This document shows positions 4,479 to 8,358 of a stretch of DNA of 64,000 bases, in pieces. This DNA is from Salinivirga cyanobacteriivorans. GTDB taxonomy: Bacteria > Bacteroidota > Bacteroidia > Bacteroidales > Salinivirgaceae. The stretch lies in contig NZ_CP013118.1 in NCBI RefSeq assembly GCF_001443605.1, positions 3,591,501 through 3,655,500 on the forward strand, given 5' to 3'. The position numbers and the translations under genes are program-made. Positions within the stretch are counted from its first letter, which is position 1, and each line of letters opens with the position of its first letter. A model generated the notes under the pieces. The model did no database searches. It saw only the letters and a program-made list of their open reading frames with translations, and was not told the DNA's origin.

Positions 4479-5483
4479 ATGCAACAAAAACACAACCTTT
4501 TAACAATTTTAATGCTGGCTTTAGTAAGCACACTATTAATTTTCACAGCTTGTGAAAAAGATGAAGATGATGAGCCAATAACAGAAGAACCCACAAACAG
4601 CGCCCCAACATGCACCATAACCAGTCCGGAGGATGGTGCTGAATTTACACAAGGTGAAACCATTACAATTGCAGTGGAAGCAGAAGATGAGGATAATAAT
4701 CTTGAAGAAGTACGTTTTTATGTAAATGATGTTGGCATAGGTTCAGCCAGCAGTTTTCCTTATAACTTTGATTGGGATACAAATGAAGAAGAACCTGGCT
4801 CGTTTACCATCAAGGCCGAGGCCATTGATGAATTACAGGAAAGAACATCGTATGAAATAAGTATTACATTAGAAAGTAGTATTACTGGTGGAACCCTAAC
4901 CGACAATGACGGTAACGTTTATTCCACCGTTCAGATTGGTGACCAGGAATGGATGGCCGAAAACCTTAAAACCACCACTTACAACGATGGTACTTCCATT
5001 GATTTGGTTACAGATAATACTGCATGGTACAACAACACCACCGGAGCTTACTGCTGGTACGATAACGACCAAGCCACCTATGCCGATACTTACGGCGCAC
5101 TGTATAACTGGCATGCTGTTAATACTGGCAACCTGTGTCCCGATGGCTGGCATGTCCCCACCGATGCGGAGTGGACAGCTTTGGAAGATTATATTGGTTC
5201 CGACGGGCATAGTGGAACTGAAGGAACTGCCTTAAAAGCTACTTCTGGTTGGAACAACGATGGAAACGGAACTGATGATTATGGTTTTACAGCCCATCCG
5301 GGAGGCTACCGTACCAGCAATGGAGCATTCGACAACGTTGGCTACTACGGTCTCTGGTGGAGTGCTACCGAGACCAATACCTACAATGCCTGGCGCCGGT
5401 ACCTGTATTACAGTTACAGCTCTGTGAACCGGAGCAGCTACTCTAAGGAGGGTGGGTTTTCGGTGCGTTGCTTGAGGGATTAA
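4479..5483 (+). CDS. DGR target protein: lipoprotein with Ig-like and FISUMP (C-type-lectin-fold) domains
   Basis: A 334-residue surface lipoprotein. The signal peptide ends in the lipobox LIFTAC (Cys about 25) followed by an acidic DEDDE segment. Residues about 38-130 form an Ig/cadherin-like beta domain (PTCTITSPEDGAEFTQGETI). Residues about 140-334 are a FISUMP domain (Fibrobacter succinogenes major paralogous domain): DNDGNVYSTVQIGDQEWMAE, LCPDGWHVPTDAEW and the closing GGFSVRCLRD. The C-terminal 65 residues are encoded by the variable repeat of a diversity-generating retroelement. Codons that are AAC/AAT in the template have become Tyr, Ser, Thr, Leu, Arg, Asp and Gly here. The predicted role is a diversified outer-surface ligand-binding protein; the ligand cannot be inferred. 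The avd-like gene follows at 5552. Confidence 0.9.
   Translation: MQQKHNLLTILMLALVSTLLIFTACEKDEDDEPITEEPTNSAPTCTITSPEDGAEFTQGETITIAVEAEDEDNNLEEVRFYVNDVGIGSASSFPYNFDWDTNEEEPGSFTIKAEAIDELQERTSYEISITLESSITGGTLTDNDGNVYSTVQIGDQEWMAENLKTTTYNDGTSIDLVTDNTAWYNNTTGAYCWYDNDQATYADTYGALYNWHAVNTGNLCPDGWHVPTDAEWTALEDYIGSDGHSGTEGTALKATSGWNNDGNGTDDYGFTAHPGGYRTSNGAFDNVGYYGLWWSATETNTYNAWRRYLYYSYSSVNRSSYSKEGGFSVRCLRD
5285..5481 (+). repeat. DGR variable repeat (VR)
   Basis: A 197-nt segment at the 3' end of the lipoprotein gene that matches the template repeat at 6594-6713 plus 7003-7079 at equal length. There are 34 substitutions, 31 of them where the template has A (to T, C or G). The three others are T to A in codon ctt/cat, T to C in aat/tac and C to T in aac/tat. 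The last 28 nt, gggttttcgg through gagggatt, are identical, as expected of the initiation-of-mutagenic-homing region. The VR ends next to the stop codon. Confidence 0.96.
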
Positions 5484-5551
5484 TTTATTTGATTCATTTG
5501 ACAATTTGATTTATTTGTTTATTTCCCGCGAAGCGGTCGAATTTTTTTTGA

Positions 5552-5946
5552 ATGGCACAGTATAACGAACTACCTGTTTATAAAGCAACTTATGATTTGC
5601 TTTTAGCAATATTCCAATTTACAAAGGAATTTAGCAGGGAGTATTCACCCCGTTAAATAGCTCTATGGCTCACGCAGTGATTTAACGGGGTAAATATACC
5701 GTTGGCGAGAGTTTGAAGAAAGAAACAATTGAACTACTTACCTTGATATACCGTGCCAATACGAGGCATCAAAAAACCGATGTGTTACAAATTGCACGAG
5801 AGCAAATAGAAGTAATACGTTTACTGATACGGGTAATGAAAGATATGAAACAAATAAATATGGCAAAATTTGTAAAAATAAATCAATCCGTCGAAAATGT
5901 ATCAAAACAATTGAACGGATGGCAAAAGTCAGTTAAAAGTTTATAA
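5552..5946 (+). pseudogene. avd: DGR accessory variability determinant (avd), interrupted by a 47-bp element
   Basis: The four-helix-bundle accessory protein that partners the DGR reverse transcriptase. The first part (5552-5644) reads MAQYNELPVYKATYDLLLAI and continues to FSREY. The second part (from 5692) reads KYTVGESLKKETIELLTLIY and continues to GWQKSVKSL, with stop at 5944-5946. Removing 5645-5691 joins them as ...FSREY-KYTVGESLK..., the usual Avd sequence. As it stands, the insertion adds SPR and a TAA stop and shifts the frame. No other lesion is visible, so the interruption is either recent or bypassed. Position between target gene and TR/RT is the normal DGR order. The gene product is small and basic, as required to bind template RNA and RT in known DGRs. 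Confidence 0.85.
5645..5691. mobile_element. 47-bp palindromic mini-element inside avd
   Basis: Begins TCACCCCGTTAAAT and ends ATTTAACGGGGT, so 12 bp at the ends are perfectly inverted around a 21-nt centre (AGCTCTATGGCTCACGCAGTG would be 21 nt; its core is CTATGGCTCACG). The same termini, with CCCTG/CAGGG instead, bound the GIY-YIG element in the TR. The boundaries are fixed by restoring the Avd reading frame and sequence. No target-site duplication is seen; the target reads TAT^AAA. It looks like a non-autonomous derivative of the GIY-YIG element. Confidence 0.75.
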
Positions 5947-6524
5947 AGTTTGTAAAGATGAAAGTATGAGGATTGAACGGTTTGAGGATATTATTGCATG
6001 GAAAAAATCAAAAGAACTTACGGTTCAGGTATATCAATTATTTGAAAACAGTAAGGATTTTGGTTTTAAAGACCAGATACAAAGAGCATCTGTTTCTATA
6101 ATGAATAACATTGCCGAAGGTTTTGAACGAAAAACAAATAATGAGTTTAAACAGTTTTTTGTTTATTGCCAAAGGTTCATGCGGTGAAGTTCGTTCAATG
6201 CTGTATTTAGCAAAGGAAATGAAAAGAATAACAGAAAAAGATTTTGTATTTCTTTTTTCTTTATCAGAAGAAATATCTAAAATACTTTCAGGCTTAATCA
6301 AAACTTTATGAACTTTCAACTTTACAAACTTGTAACTAAATTCGTTTTCCGCCAGAGTCCCAGTGGACAAGTTCACCGGGAGCGAGCAATTTTTAATCCG
6401 GTAACCCGCTGGCAAAGTAAATACCAATAAAGTATGAAAGTTTTAAAGTTCATAAAGTATTTAAAGTTTGAATACAGCTTTGCTGTTTCTACTTTTAACT
6501 TTCCACTTTACTAACTTTTAACTG
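5930..6524. mobile_element. Inverted-repeat-bounded S23/IVP module between avd and TR
   Basis: Outer inverted repeats: CAGTTAAAAGTTTATAAAG at 5930-5948 and its near-complement at 6506-6524 (17 of 19). Inner inverted repeats: AAGTTTGTAAAGATGAAAGT at 5946-5965 and its complement at 6312-6331 (19 of 20); these abut the start and stop of the S23-type gene exactly. Between 6332 and 6505 lie further palindromic pieces (CCCAGTGGAC/GTTCACCGGG near 6359-6380, GCCAG/CTGGC, and ACAGCTTTGCTGT near 6476). The layout of a gene enclosed by complementary ends is like that of intervening sequences found in some 23S rRNA genes, which encode the same protein family. Confidence 0.6.
5966..6311 (+). pseudogene. 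S23 / 23S rRNA intervening-sequence-type four-helix bundle protein, frameshifted
   Basis: The N-terminal part MRIERFEDIIAWKKSKELTV through NIAEGFERKTNNEFKQF and the C-terminal part FIAKGSCGEVRSMLYLAKEM through SGLIKTL are in different frames. One extra T in the T6 run at 6155-6160 explains the break: with five T the protein reads straight through as FKQFLFIAKGSCGEVR, the family consensus. Corrected length is about 114 residues, normal for this family (TIGR02436). The family is structurally related to Avd, but this copy is a separate module flanked by its own inverted repeats. It may be a hitch-hiking element rather than a DGR component. Confidence 0.8.
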
Positions 6525-6713
6525 ATGTGGTTTTTGTTAGCTATAAAAGATTGTATTGCCTGCAAATGGTGGTACAACAAATTAAGTGGTTACTTTTACA
6601 GCCCTTCCGGGAGGCAATCGTAACAACAATGGAACATTCAACAACATTGGAAACAACGGTAACTGGTGGAGTGCTACCGAGAACAATACCAACAATGCCT
6701 GGAACCGGAACAT

Positions 6714-7002
6714 TCACCCTGTTAAATAATTTCAAATCTTAATATTATGTGGTACTATGTTTATGTTTTAAAAAGCCAAAAGGATGGCAAATTTTACACT
6801 GGCTATACAAAAGATTTGAAATTACGATTTGAGCAACATACTAATGGGGAAGTGTCTTCCACCAAAGATAGAAGGCCTTTAGTTCTGATTTACTTTGAAG
6901 GATGTTTAAACCAACAAGATGCTACTCACCGTGAGAAATATTTGAAAACCCATCATGGTAAAATGTTTCTTGGCAATCGGCTCAAATCGTATTTAACAGG
7001 GT
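6714..7002 (+). mobile_element. 289-bp palindrome-ended GIY-YIG element inserted in the TR
   Basis: Begins TCACCCTGTTAAAT at 6714 and ends ATTTAACAGGGT at 7002. Boundaries are determined by the TR/VR alignment, which becomes gap-free at 197 nt only if exactly these 289 nt are removed. The element is little more than its ends plus one GIY-YIG gene, with about 19 nt between left terminus and start codon. No target-site duplication is seen; the target reads CAT^GAA. It shares termini and target pattern with the 47-bp element in avd. Confidence 0.85.
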
Positions 7003-7004
7003 GA
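6747..7004 (+). CDS. GIY-YIG endonuclease of the UPF0213/YhbQ-like small family
   Basis: An 85-residue single-domain GIY-YIG nuclease. WYYVYVLKSQKDGKFYTGYT contains the motif pair (YVY ... YTGYT), followed by the conserved LRFEQH and the catalytic-type Glu in REKYLKT. The C-terminus YLTG is encoded by the right palindromic end of the element. The stop codon TGA uses T7002 from the element and G7003-A7004 from the host TR, so the gene depends on the target for its stop. The likely role is cutting or nicking DNA to move the palindromic element, by analogy with GIY-YIG homing endonucleases; this is inference. The gene lies inside the DGR template and is not a known DGR component. Confidence 0.85.
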   Translation: MWYYVYVLKSQKDGKFYTGYTKDLKLRFEQHTNGEVSSTKDRRPLVLIYFEGCLNQQDATHREKYLKTHHGKMFLGNRLKSYLTG

Positions 7005-7091
7005 ACTACAATAACAGCAATGTAAACCGGAACAACAACAATAAGGAAAATGGGTTTTCGGTGCGTTGCTTGAGGGATTTAAAGGAAAACA

Positions 7092-7120
7092 AAGCCACGG
7101 AGATTTTTTCTCCGTGGCTT
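7092..7120 (+). terminator. Strong hairpin after TR
   Basis: AAGCCACGGAGA pairs perfectly with TCTCCGTGGCTT (12 bp stem, T5 loop), starting 12 nt after the TR end. A short T-run follows. It could terminate a TR transcript or be a structured part of the TR/spacer RNA that the reverse transcriptase recognises. Known DGRs often have a hairpin near the VR rather than the TR. Confidence 0.65.
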
Positions 7121-7188
7121 TTACAAAAAATCAAATGCAACAACTCAATTTATTTTCATAAACCGATAGCGAAAAAATTACGTTTGAT

Positions 7189-8358
7189 ATGTTCCGGGCA
7201 TATTTCGATGCACGTAAAAATAAAAGGAATACGATTAACCAACTTGTTTTCGAGAAATGCCTTGAATCCAATATTTTTGAACTTGTCAATGAAGTATTAA
7301 AATATCAATACATACCAAAATCGTCCATTTGCTTTATCGTGAACAACCCTGTAAAACGAGAAATTTTTGCGGCAGATTTTCGCGACAGGGTTATCCATCA
7401 TTTTATTTACAATTATATATCCCCTGTTTTCGAAAAAACCTTTATAAATGACAGCTATAGCTGTCGTTTGGGCAAAGGAACACATTATGGCATAAAACGC
7501 ATTGACCATTTTATCCGTTCCTGCTCTCAAAATTATACGAAAGATTGCTATATCCTAAAACTCGACATTAGAGGCTATTTTATGGCTATGAACAAAAAAC
7601 TGCTGTTTCAAAAAGCCAAGCAGGAACTCATTAAGCAAAAAAATAAACTCAGTTTTGATTTGCCACTTGTGCTTTACCTCATTGAAAAAACCATTTTTAA
7701 CGATCCCACAAAAAATTGCATCGTAAAAGGACAAAAATCCAACTGGCAGCATTTACCCACAGACAAAAGCCTATTCCATGCAAAAAGGAATTGTGGCCTG
7801 CCCATTGGTAACCTAACATCTCAATTGTTTGGCAATGTGTACCTCAATGAATTTGACCACTGGGTTAAAAAAGAACTGGGCATAAAATATTACGGCCGCT
7901 ATGTTGATGATTTTGTGTTGATACACGAAAACAAAGGCTATTTGAAATTTTTAATACCAATACTTTCAAACTTTTTGCATTCAACTTTAAAACTCGATTT
8001 ACATCCGCGCAAAATATACCTGCAACATTACACCAAAGGCGTAAAATACCTTGGTGCCATGATCAAACCGCACCGAATATACTTAGGCAACCGCACCAAA
8101 GGCAATTTTTACAATACGCTACAGCAGTATAACCAAATAATTGCCCGGCGCACACCGGATAAAGATGACATACAGGCATTTCAAAGCAGCATGAATTCTT
8201 ATCTTGGGATTGCCAAGCATTACAAAACCCGTAAAATACGCAAAAAACTTATTTTTCAACACATGGACAACCGCTGTTGGCAATACGTTTATTTGTTGAA
8301 TTACGACAAATTTGTTATAAAACCCAAAAGCAGGAACGCAGTTAATTACGTTGGGTAA
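7189..8358 (+). CDS. DGR-type reverse transcriptase
   Basis: A 389-residue reverse transcriptase. It copies the TR RNA into adenine-mutagenised cDNA that replaces the VR. Motifs in order: RDRVIHHFIY (about 65-74), LKLDIRGYF with the first catalytic Asp (about 126), GLPIGNLTSQLFGNVYLNEF (203-222) carrying the DGR-type IGxxxSQ motif, and RYVDDFVL (237-244) with the catalytic YVDD. A thumb-like region with GVKYLGAMIKPHRIYLGNRT follows. There is no maturase or endonuclease domain, unlike group II intron proteins. The frame is open from 7162 but 7189 is the only ATG near the expected N-terminus. The gene looks intact while avd and TR are interrupted. Confidence 0.96.
   Translation: MFRAYFDARKNKRNTINQLVFEKCLESNIFELVNEVLKYQYIPKSSICFIVNNPVKREIFAADFRDRVIHHFIYNYISPVFEKTFINDSYSCRLGKGTHYGIKRIDHFIRSCSQNYTKDCYILKLDIRGYFMAMNKKLLFQKAKQELIKQKNKLSFDLPLVLYLIEKTIFNDPTKNCIVKGQKSNWQHLPTDKSLFHAKRNCGLPIGNLTSQLFGNVYLNEFDHWVKKELGIKYYGRYVDDFVLIHENKGYLKFLIPILSNFLHSTLKLDLHPRKIYLQHYTKGVKYLGAMIKPHRIYLGNRTKGNFYNTLQQYNQIIARRTPDKDDIQAFQSSMNSYLGIAKHYKTRKIRKKLIFQHMDNRCWQYVYLLNYDKFVIKPKSRNAVNYVG

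What the first reader, a model, noticed from the sequence alone, without database searches (positions are those of the whole stretch)
6714..7002. A 289-bp GIY-YIG nuclease element interrupts the DGR template repeat
Removing exactly 6714-7002 makes TR and VR equal in length and gap-free, so the insertion boundaries are known to the base. The element is only a palindromic pair of ends (TCACCCTGTTAAAT / ATTTAACAGGGT) and one 85-aa GIY-YIG gene. No target-site duplication or extra bases are left. The VR does not carry the insertion, so either it is younger than the last retrohoming, the interrupted TR no longer works, or the element is removed from TR RNA. Such an element inside a DGR template is new to me.
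Basis: partly seen in the sequence, partly recalled or inferred. Interest (0 to 1): 0.92.

Follow-up and report, generated by a model that had tools for sequence, protein, structure and literature searches.

The report
Selfish nuclease element inside DGR template
A tiny, probably mobile piece of DNA that carries only a DNA-cutting enzyme gene and can fold on itself has landed inside the template of a bacterial protein-diversifying machine; it belongs to a widespread family of such elements that I found no description of.

Summary
6714-7002 is an exact 289-bp insertion in the DGR template repeat (TR); a related DGR (G767) has the uninterrupted TR.

It is not a private oddity. About 100 loci in Bacteroidota, Patescibacteria, Desulfobacterota and others share the plan: one ~85-aa GIY-YIG gene between inverted ends. 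In 44 of 59 aligned copies the unit also pairs into a three-way junction: terminal stem P1, leader-with-gene P2, gene-with-3'-end P3. Covariation is strong (156 double-changed cells against 45 in shuffles) and P2/P3 hold up in held-out copies. G.T mispairs are not favoured over A.C (28 against 47), so the constraint looks like DNA, not RNA.

Copies interrupt conserved genes, nearly always in sense. Nuclease lineages partly track target families. Three DGRs carry a copy, and this DGR's avd gene holds a 47-bp relic.

Best reading: a selfish, homing-like element that knocked out this template. Removal from RNA is possible but unlikely. Mobility was inferred, never observed.

The parts
6714..7002 (+). 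the inserted element (289 bp); 6713-7001 is equivalent
   Evidence: TR/VR register; empty TR in G767
6747..7004 (+). GIY-YIG nuclease gene, 85 aa, UPF0213-like; stop codon in the right end of the element
6713..6728 (+). P1 left arm (terminal inverted repeat)
   Evidence: 16 nt, 100% complementary to 6990-7005 (I11)
6990..7005 (+). P1 right arm
   Evidence: I11; pairing across copies
6727..6740 (+). P2 left arm (leader)
   Evidence: 14 nt, 100% complementary to 6811-6824 (I17)
6811..6824 (+). P2 right arm (inside the gene)
   Evidence: I17
6820..6834 (+). P3 left arm (inside the gene; overlaps P2 by a few bases at the branch)
   Evidence: 15 nt, 93% complementary to 6980-6994 (I19)
6980..6994 (+). 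P3 right arm
   Evidence: I19
6594..6713 (+). DGR template repeat, left part
7003..7079 (+). DGR template repeat, right part
5285..5481 (+). variable repeat (VR) at the end of a FISUMP-domain gene (4479-5483)
5645..5691 (.). 47-bp palindromic relic of the same kind interrupting avd
   Evidence: sequence; the joined frame reads REY-KYTVGE as in the Avd beside L057; hairpin z -2.9, 3 of 200 shuffles as stable
5552..5946 (+). avd gene in two parts (5552-5644 and 5692-5946)
6351..6600 (+). RT-7-like structured RNA upstream of TR (below the Rfam gathering score)
   Evidence: RF03028, 66.1 bits, E 1.5e-14, 2.6e-15
7189..8358 (+). DGR reverse transcriptase, 389 aa, open

Best explanation
The insertion is one copy of a widespread family of minimal selfish DNA elements. 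Each has one GIY-YIG nuclease gene inside a DNA sequence that can pair into a terminal stem (P1) and, in most copies, a full three-way junction (P1, P2, P3), with the gene in the loops. Proposed cycle: the nuclease is made from the host transcript (inferred from the sense bias). It cuts a conserved motif of a target gene at or next to a T-R-A-A-like tetranucleotide (inferred). Repair then installs the element between two target bases without a target-site duplication (the structure is shown at three sites, the reaction inferred). The palindromic or three-way DNA fold is the recognised feature of the unit (selection on the pairing is shown, its role inferred). Spread is homing-like: lineages partly track target families. 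In this genome a copy entered the DGR template, in sense orientation, and most likely put the DGR out of action; another member left a 47-bp relic in avd.
For: - Exact insertion and an empty TR in a related DGR. G767's own element has the window as empty site: by hand, CAACAAATTAAGTGG and the joined G767 flanks are equally long.
- 97 distinct loci with both ends found, after 20 of 122 loci gave none.
- Covariation: 88.5% of cells paired against 80.8% shuffled, 156 double changes against 45.4 (0 of 500); slid controls 19-33. By my tally of that table 111 of the 156 lie in P2 and P3, which played no part in picking the loci. In 28 held-out copies P2 scores 24.5 against 16.3 (sd 0.79) and P3 23.3 against 18.9 (sd 0.51) when partners are swapped.
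- DNA rather than RNA: 28 G.T cells (44.3 expected) and 47 A.C cells (57.2 expected) among 221 non-Watson-Crick cells.
- The ssDNA fold of this copy shows the three stems, z -4.9.
- Sense orientation 47:3 among interrupted genes named by eye, p 3.7e-11.
- Target labels cluster on the nuclease tree: 32 changes against 48.4, 0 of 200; 7 of 8 RAYT copies in one supported clade.
- In 18 of 20 pairs with the same target family the element DNA is more alike than both flanks.
Against: - No movement was seen, and no strain pair with and without the element was found.
- P1 was part of how ends were found (at least 9 of 12 bases pairing), so its pairing counts lean upward.
- The ends are not identical at all sites: joins that restore a reading frame differ by 1-3 nt between loci, and two sites (L127, L132) lost or changed one base.
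- RNAalifold on the same alignment predicts only P1. By my cut-off 15 of 59 aligned copies lack P2 or P3, among them the DGR copy L057.
- Sense bias counted by target families is only 11:2 (p 0.022).
- Higher likeness of the element than of flanks would also follow if the nuclease simply evolves more slowly; in 2 of 20 pairs it fails, and in L127/L132 and L059/L133 the insertion points differ.
- GIY-YIG chemistry gives no strand transfer (recalled), so another activity must complete insertion.
- The relatives with solved structures (UPF0213) carry no named function.
Confidence: 0.62

Rival explanations
1. RNA-level element: the unit is removed from the transcript (unconventional splicing at the foot of P1) or bypassed by the ribosome, so that TR and interrupted genes stay functional, as with introns or T4 gene 60 bypassing.
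For: Strong sense orientation; a stem brings the exon ends together; many interrupted genes have open frames on both sides; joined frames often read through.
Against: No intron model in Rfam; G.T pairs not favoured over A.C in the stems; three antisense copies; copies between genes are mostly sense as well (34 same, 6 opposite, 4 none; after removing three duplicates), which splicing does not need; excess of non-adenine TR/VR changes here; some interrupted genes look decayed by eye (L066, L086, L141).
Confidence: 0.1
2. Single-strand DNA transposition like IS200/IS605 or REP elements: the folded strand is cut at a foot tetranucleotide and moved, by the GIY-YIG protein itself or by a Y1 (HuH) enzyme in trans.
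For: DNA-type pairing; end polarity two bases outside CCC and GGG: C with A in 34 loci, T with G in 27, C with G in 4, T with A in 16 (Fisher 1e-6); insertion next to a tetranucleotide without duplication at TR, avd and G767. IS200/IS605 ends and REPs carry foot tetranucleotides (PMC6006769, passages).
Against: No HuH gene in the unit; the junctions vary by 1-3 nt; nuclease lineages partly track target genes, which is homing behaviour; orientation follows host transcription.
Confidence: 0.18
3. Ordinary free-standing homing endonuclease gene; the stems are only repeated protein-binding sites in double-stranded DNA and the fold itself has no role.
For: GIY-YIG family, target-linked lineages, same transcriptional orientation as neighbours, as for all but one of the T4 homing endonuclease genes (PMC2988022, passages).
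Against: P2 and P3 pair leader and 3' end with coding sequence and covary copy by copy, also in held-out copies; shared protein sites would rather converge on one sequence.
Confidence: 0.1

Closest known systems
Free-standing GIY-YIG homing endonucleases of phage T4 (SegA-G; PMC2988022, passages read)
   Same: Stand-alone GIY-YIG gene, mostly in sense with its neighbours, tied to target genes
   Different: Cleavage site far from the insertion site; no inverted ends or three-way fold in the passages read; here the unit itself interrupts the target
IS200/IS605 elements and REP sequences (PMC6006769, passages read)
   Same: Palindromic DNA, foot tetranucleotides, no target duplication (the last recalled)
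   Different: They use Y1 HuH transposases; here the only gene is a GIY-YIG nuclease
GIY-YIG proteins encoded in rRNA insertion sequences of CPR bacteria (PMC11270868, passages read)
   Same: GIY-YIG genes in inserts that match no group I or II intron, in a group that also carries the present family
   Different: Inserts in rRNA genes; the word 'inverted' does not occur in the main text, and the authors place these GIY-YIG genes outside spread by homing
Diversity-generating retroelement (avd, TR, VR, RT; Rfam RT-7)
   Same: The host locus is a regular DGR
   Different: TR and avd are both interrupted
UPF0213 proteins (PDB 1zg2, 1ywl)
   Same: Nearest solved sequences, E 2e-10 and 3e-8
   Different: No named function; not known to me to lie between inverted ends

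Membership tests
Diversity-generating retroelement (host locus) | TR and VR differ mainly at TR adenines | tested here: met
   31 of 34 mismatches at A
Diversity-generating retroelement (host locus) | intact RT and avd beside TR | tested here: not met
   RT open; avd interrupted by a 47-bp palindrome
Group I or II intron | catalytic RNA core | tested here: not met
   no Rfam match at gathering score in L030, L054, L127, L149, L181; no intron among 15 matches to E 10 on window 5400-7300
Free-standing homing endonuclease gene | endonuclease of a homing family | tested here: met
   PF01541, E 4e-16; in the alignment of 11 (window and 10 relatives) Y17, G19, R27, H31 and E63 are invariant, Y6 at least 90% (their catalytic roles recalled)
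Free-standing homing endonuclease gene | cuts the empty allele and spreads by repair | not testable with these tools
   only indirect: target-linked lineages and likeness of elements
IS200/IS605 or REP element | Y1 HuH transposase | tested here: not met
   the only gene of the unit is GIY-YIG
IS200/IS605 or REP element | foot tetranucleotide beside a hairpin | tested here: inconclusive
   polarised ends, but junctions vary by 1-3 nt
Classical insertion sequence | transposase and target-site duplication | tested here: not met
   no transposase in the unit; at most one ambiguous base

The most novel reading that the evidence does not exclude
A new class of transposable element: a ~290-bp unit that folds as single-stranded DNA into a three-way junction, encodes a GIY-YIG nuclease that recognises its own branched fold and a foot tetranucleotide, moves between conserved genes of very different bacteria, and repeatedly parasitises DGR cassettes, shutting down a protein-diversifying system by entering its template.
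Probability: 0.35. Interest if true: 0.92.

Novelty: new variant of a known kind. Interest (0 to 1): 0.8.

Why it matters
GIY-YIG genes of this kind are common and, as far as I know, annotated only as nucleases. If the reading is right, many of them are among the smallest self-contained mobile elements, with a gene whose coding sequence is also part of a DNA fold. It would explain a set of interrupted genes (RAYT-like, four-helix-bundle, GxxExxY, integrases). It also gives a natural knock-out of a DGR template, and a testable link between branched-DNA nucleases of the GIY-YIG type and mobility.

Tried and rejected
Introns: Rfam at gathering score on 8 loci, and to E 10 on window 5400-7300, gave no intron. 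Translational bypassing: the avd relic (47 nt) resembles a bypass hairpin in size, but the frame REYKYTVGE returns only by exact removal, and TR is not translated (bypassing is recalled, one search was a listing). A high-copy hairpin (MITE) family: one strict hairpin pattern found only the window relic in 345 genomes; another hairpin stands beside L110. Misassembly: the genome is one contig and the family recurs in about 100 loci. Sense bias from insertion polarity: both end polarities occur in sense. The length rule for orientation (58 sense, 3 antisense, 41 undecided, 20 without ends) counts copies between genes and duplicates as well, and misjudged L108; I therefore counted by named genes. 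The first end-finding pattern was wrong and was replaced; the first swap test failed and was rerun.

Full report
What is there. The window holds a DGR: a FISUMP-domain gene with VR (4479-5483), avd (5552-5946), an RT-7-like RNA (6351-6600, below Rfam's gathering score), TR and an open RT (7189-8358). TR is split by 289 bp, 6714-7002. Without it TR and VR align over 197 columns with 34 mismatches, 31 at TR adenines. The best-scoring DGR RT of another genome (G767, 69% identical) lies beside an uninterrupted TR with the same CCGGAACATGAAC, so the empty site is known from two sources.

The unit. It has 16-nt perfect inverted ends (6713-6728, 6990-7005) and an 85-aa GIY-YIG gene whose stop codon lies in the right end. 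Two more pairs of arms are exact or nearly so: 6727-6740 with 6811-6824 (14 nt, 100%), and 6820-6834 with 6980-6994 (15 nt, 93%). The arms meet, overlapping by a few bases, so together they make a three-way junction. Folded as ssDNA the unit shows it (z -4.9), and as RNA inside TR too (z -4.3 for the whole stretch).

Relatives. Own genome: 11 GIY-YIG matches, of which one besides the window copy is close (79% aa), in a RAYT-like gene; the rest are 34-39% identical. Order: 9 of 295 genomes at E 1e-20, 11 copies. Phylum: 31 of 395 at E 1e-22 with an alignment. Viral contigs: 3. Of 122 loci examined, 20 gave no ends by my rule; without five duplicates 97 remained, one of them (L170) doubtful and dropped later. 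Core lengths (CCC to GGG) run mostly from about 270 to 320.

Pairing. On 59 units (of 93 collected; I chose 59 to keep the alignment small) the three-stem structure, drawn from the window, has 156 double-changed cells against 45.4 in shuffles (0 of 500) and 19-33 when slid. By my tally of that table 45 of these are in P1, 77 in P2 and 34 in P3. P1 was part of how ends were found, so its counts lean upward; P2 and P3 were not. In 28 of the 34 held-out units (6 lacked the anchor motif) each copy's leader pairs with its own gene better than with other copies' genes: 24.5 against 16.3, sd 0.79; for P3, 23.3 against 18.9, sd 0.51. By a fixed cut-off 44 of 59 show both P2 and P3; several of the rest start the gene directly after P1. 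RNAalifold found only P1, which I count against. Among 221 non-Watson-Crick cells, G.T is seen 28 times (44.3 expected) and A.C 47 times (57.2 expected). A selected RNA would be expected to keep G.U pairs, so I read the constraint as DNA.

Ends. Two bases outside CCC and GGG the copies carry C with A (34; mostly TTCA...TAAA) or T with G (27; mostly the mirror TTTA...TGAA); C with G (4, the window among them) and T with A (16) are rarer than chance (Fisher 1e-6; loci are related, so the p value is rough). Where an empty site is at hand (TR; avd by homologues; G767 by the window, aligned by hand) the insert ends before T-R-A-A-like bases, with no loss and no duplication. In the IS transposase pair L127/L132, each the other's empty site, one base differs. 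In RAYT-like genes frame-restoring joins vary by 1-3 nt. So the ends are not perfectly fixed.

Targets. A rule on open-frame lengths gave 58 sense, 3 antisense, 41 undecided and 20 without ends, duplicates and copies between genes included. By eye from the translations I named 50 interrupted genes: RAYT-like 8, four-helix-bundle 15, GxxExxY 5, integrase 6, ORF6N 3, HepT-like 2, Bro/DinD 2, RHS-like 2, another GIY-YIG 2, HEPN 1, an ATPase-like gene 1 (47 sense); and three transposases antisense (L127, L132, L142). L108, antisense by the rule, is a GxxExxY gene in sense by eye; L124, antisense by the rule, lies between genes. Pfam on exons apart was run for 10 of the 50: both halves matched one family in L122, L061, L099 (left half only at E 0.037) and L142; one half only in L153, L133, L065 (weak), L127 and L123; neither half in L129. 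RAYT-like naming rests on the PNHFH motif (recalled) and homologues (which also shows three further RAYT-like genes in the window's genome). 47:3 gives p 3.7e-11; by families 11:2, p 0.022. Copies between genes: 34 of 44 co-directional with the longest open frame downstream, 6 opposite, 4 without (three duplicates removed by hand; one of the 6, L106, also has a long sense frame). Four further copies fetched later, L238-L240 and L243, are sense by eye and not in these counts. Because both end polarities occur in sense, orientation is not set by insertion polarity; need of host transcription is the simplest cause.

Spread. On a tree of 89 nuclease rows (85 columns, many forks unresolved) target labels are clustered (32 changes against 48.4; 0 of 200), with 7 of 8 RAYT copies in one supported clade (97/92). 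The three DGR copies need 3 changes and sit in different places, but the well-supported forks alone do not rule out one origin. In 18 of 20 pairs with the same target family the element is more alike than both flanks (for example 87% against 77% and 68%). Exceptions: L075/L108, one flank more alike over only 38 bases; L153/L155, level with one flank. In L127/L132 and L059/L133 the insertion points differ, so flanks are not strictly comparable. A slowly evolving nuclease would also give this result.

DGRs as targets. Of the 27 RT loci listed (22 of 393 genomes, E 1e-80), two carry a close copy: the window and G767, the latter between avd and TR. A third DGR (G046) has one at the avd start; its RT reads in two frames. 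Of the 11 copies, two lie in DGRs. DGR cassettes are a tiny part of these genomes, so this looks like enrichment; I made no formal test, and the window was the reason for looking.

State of this DGR. Non-adenine TR/VR differences are 3 of 125 here and 2 of 681 in six relatives (p 0.029); six of nine fetched relatives gave a TR/VR pair. Together with the avd relic this points to an idle DGR. It is weak evidence taken alone.

Another architecture. In sugar-epimerase loci (L110, L146, L149, L098; L156 and L169 look alike by eye) the element follows a short copy of the gene's 5' end, and a full gene with its own start follows. The host gene is thus kept.

Literature. Ten searches of the held open-access library listed no paper whose title or abstract start describes such units; one search named one paper holding both GIY-YIG and DGR (PMC5718144, listing only, not read). 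I read passages of PMC11270868, PMC2988022, PMC6006769, PMC1564403 and PMC7610144, and the abstract of PMC3686654. Preprints were not held and most subscription papers are missing. Human ANKLE1, a GIY-YIG nuclease, cuts three-way and other branched DNA (PMC7610144), which makes recognition of a branched fold plausible, no more.

Verdict. Observation confirmed; a homing-like selfish element is the best explanation (0.62); the pairing and its DNA nature are the novel part.

Noticed in passing
L162, L163, L167 (about 1467-1781): A related GIY-YIG gene with 27-29-bp inverted arms stands at the 5' end of the RNase P RNA gene; RF00010 is confirmed in L162 and L167.
   Followed up: partly
L146, L149, L110, L098, L156, L169: In sugar-epimerase genes the element is preceded by a short copy of the gene's 5' end and followed by a full gene, as if the target's start is replaced; L098 appears to have two elements in tandem.
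   Followed up: partly
L110, just left of the GIY-YIG element: A short perfect hairpin with the same TTTACCC...GGGTGAA ends and no gene, like the avd relic.
   Followed up: no
G000:C1 2859937-2861141 and 2872013-2875908 (L043, L044): Arrays of more distant GIY-YIG genes, with a repeated 38-nt imperfect palindrome in the second array.
   Followed up: no
window 5966-6311: The four-helix-bundle gene between avd and TR appears broken by a frameshift (two overlapping frames).
   Followed up: no
L041 769-803 and 2123-2155: REP-like palindromes (ATTCACCAGGTGACT and its complement, one base apart) on both sides of the interrupted RAYT-like gene.
   Followed up: no
L118, L102, L082 and other Patescibacteria loci: The right end (GGGTGA or GGGTAAATG) can serve as stop of the GIY-YIG gene and start of the next gene, so operon insertions look harmless.
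   Followed up: partly
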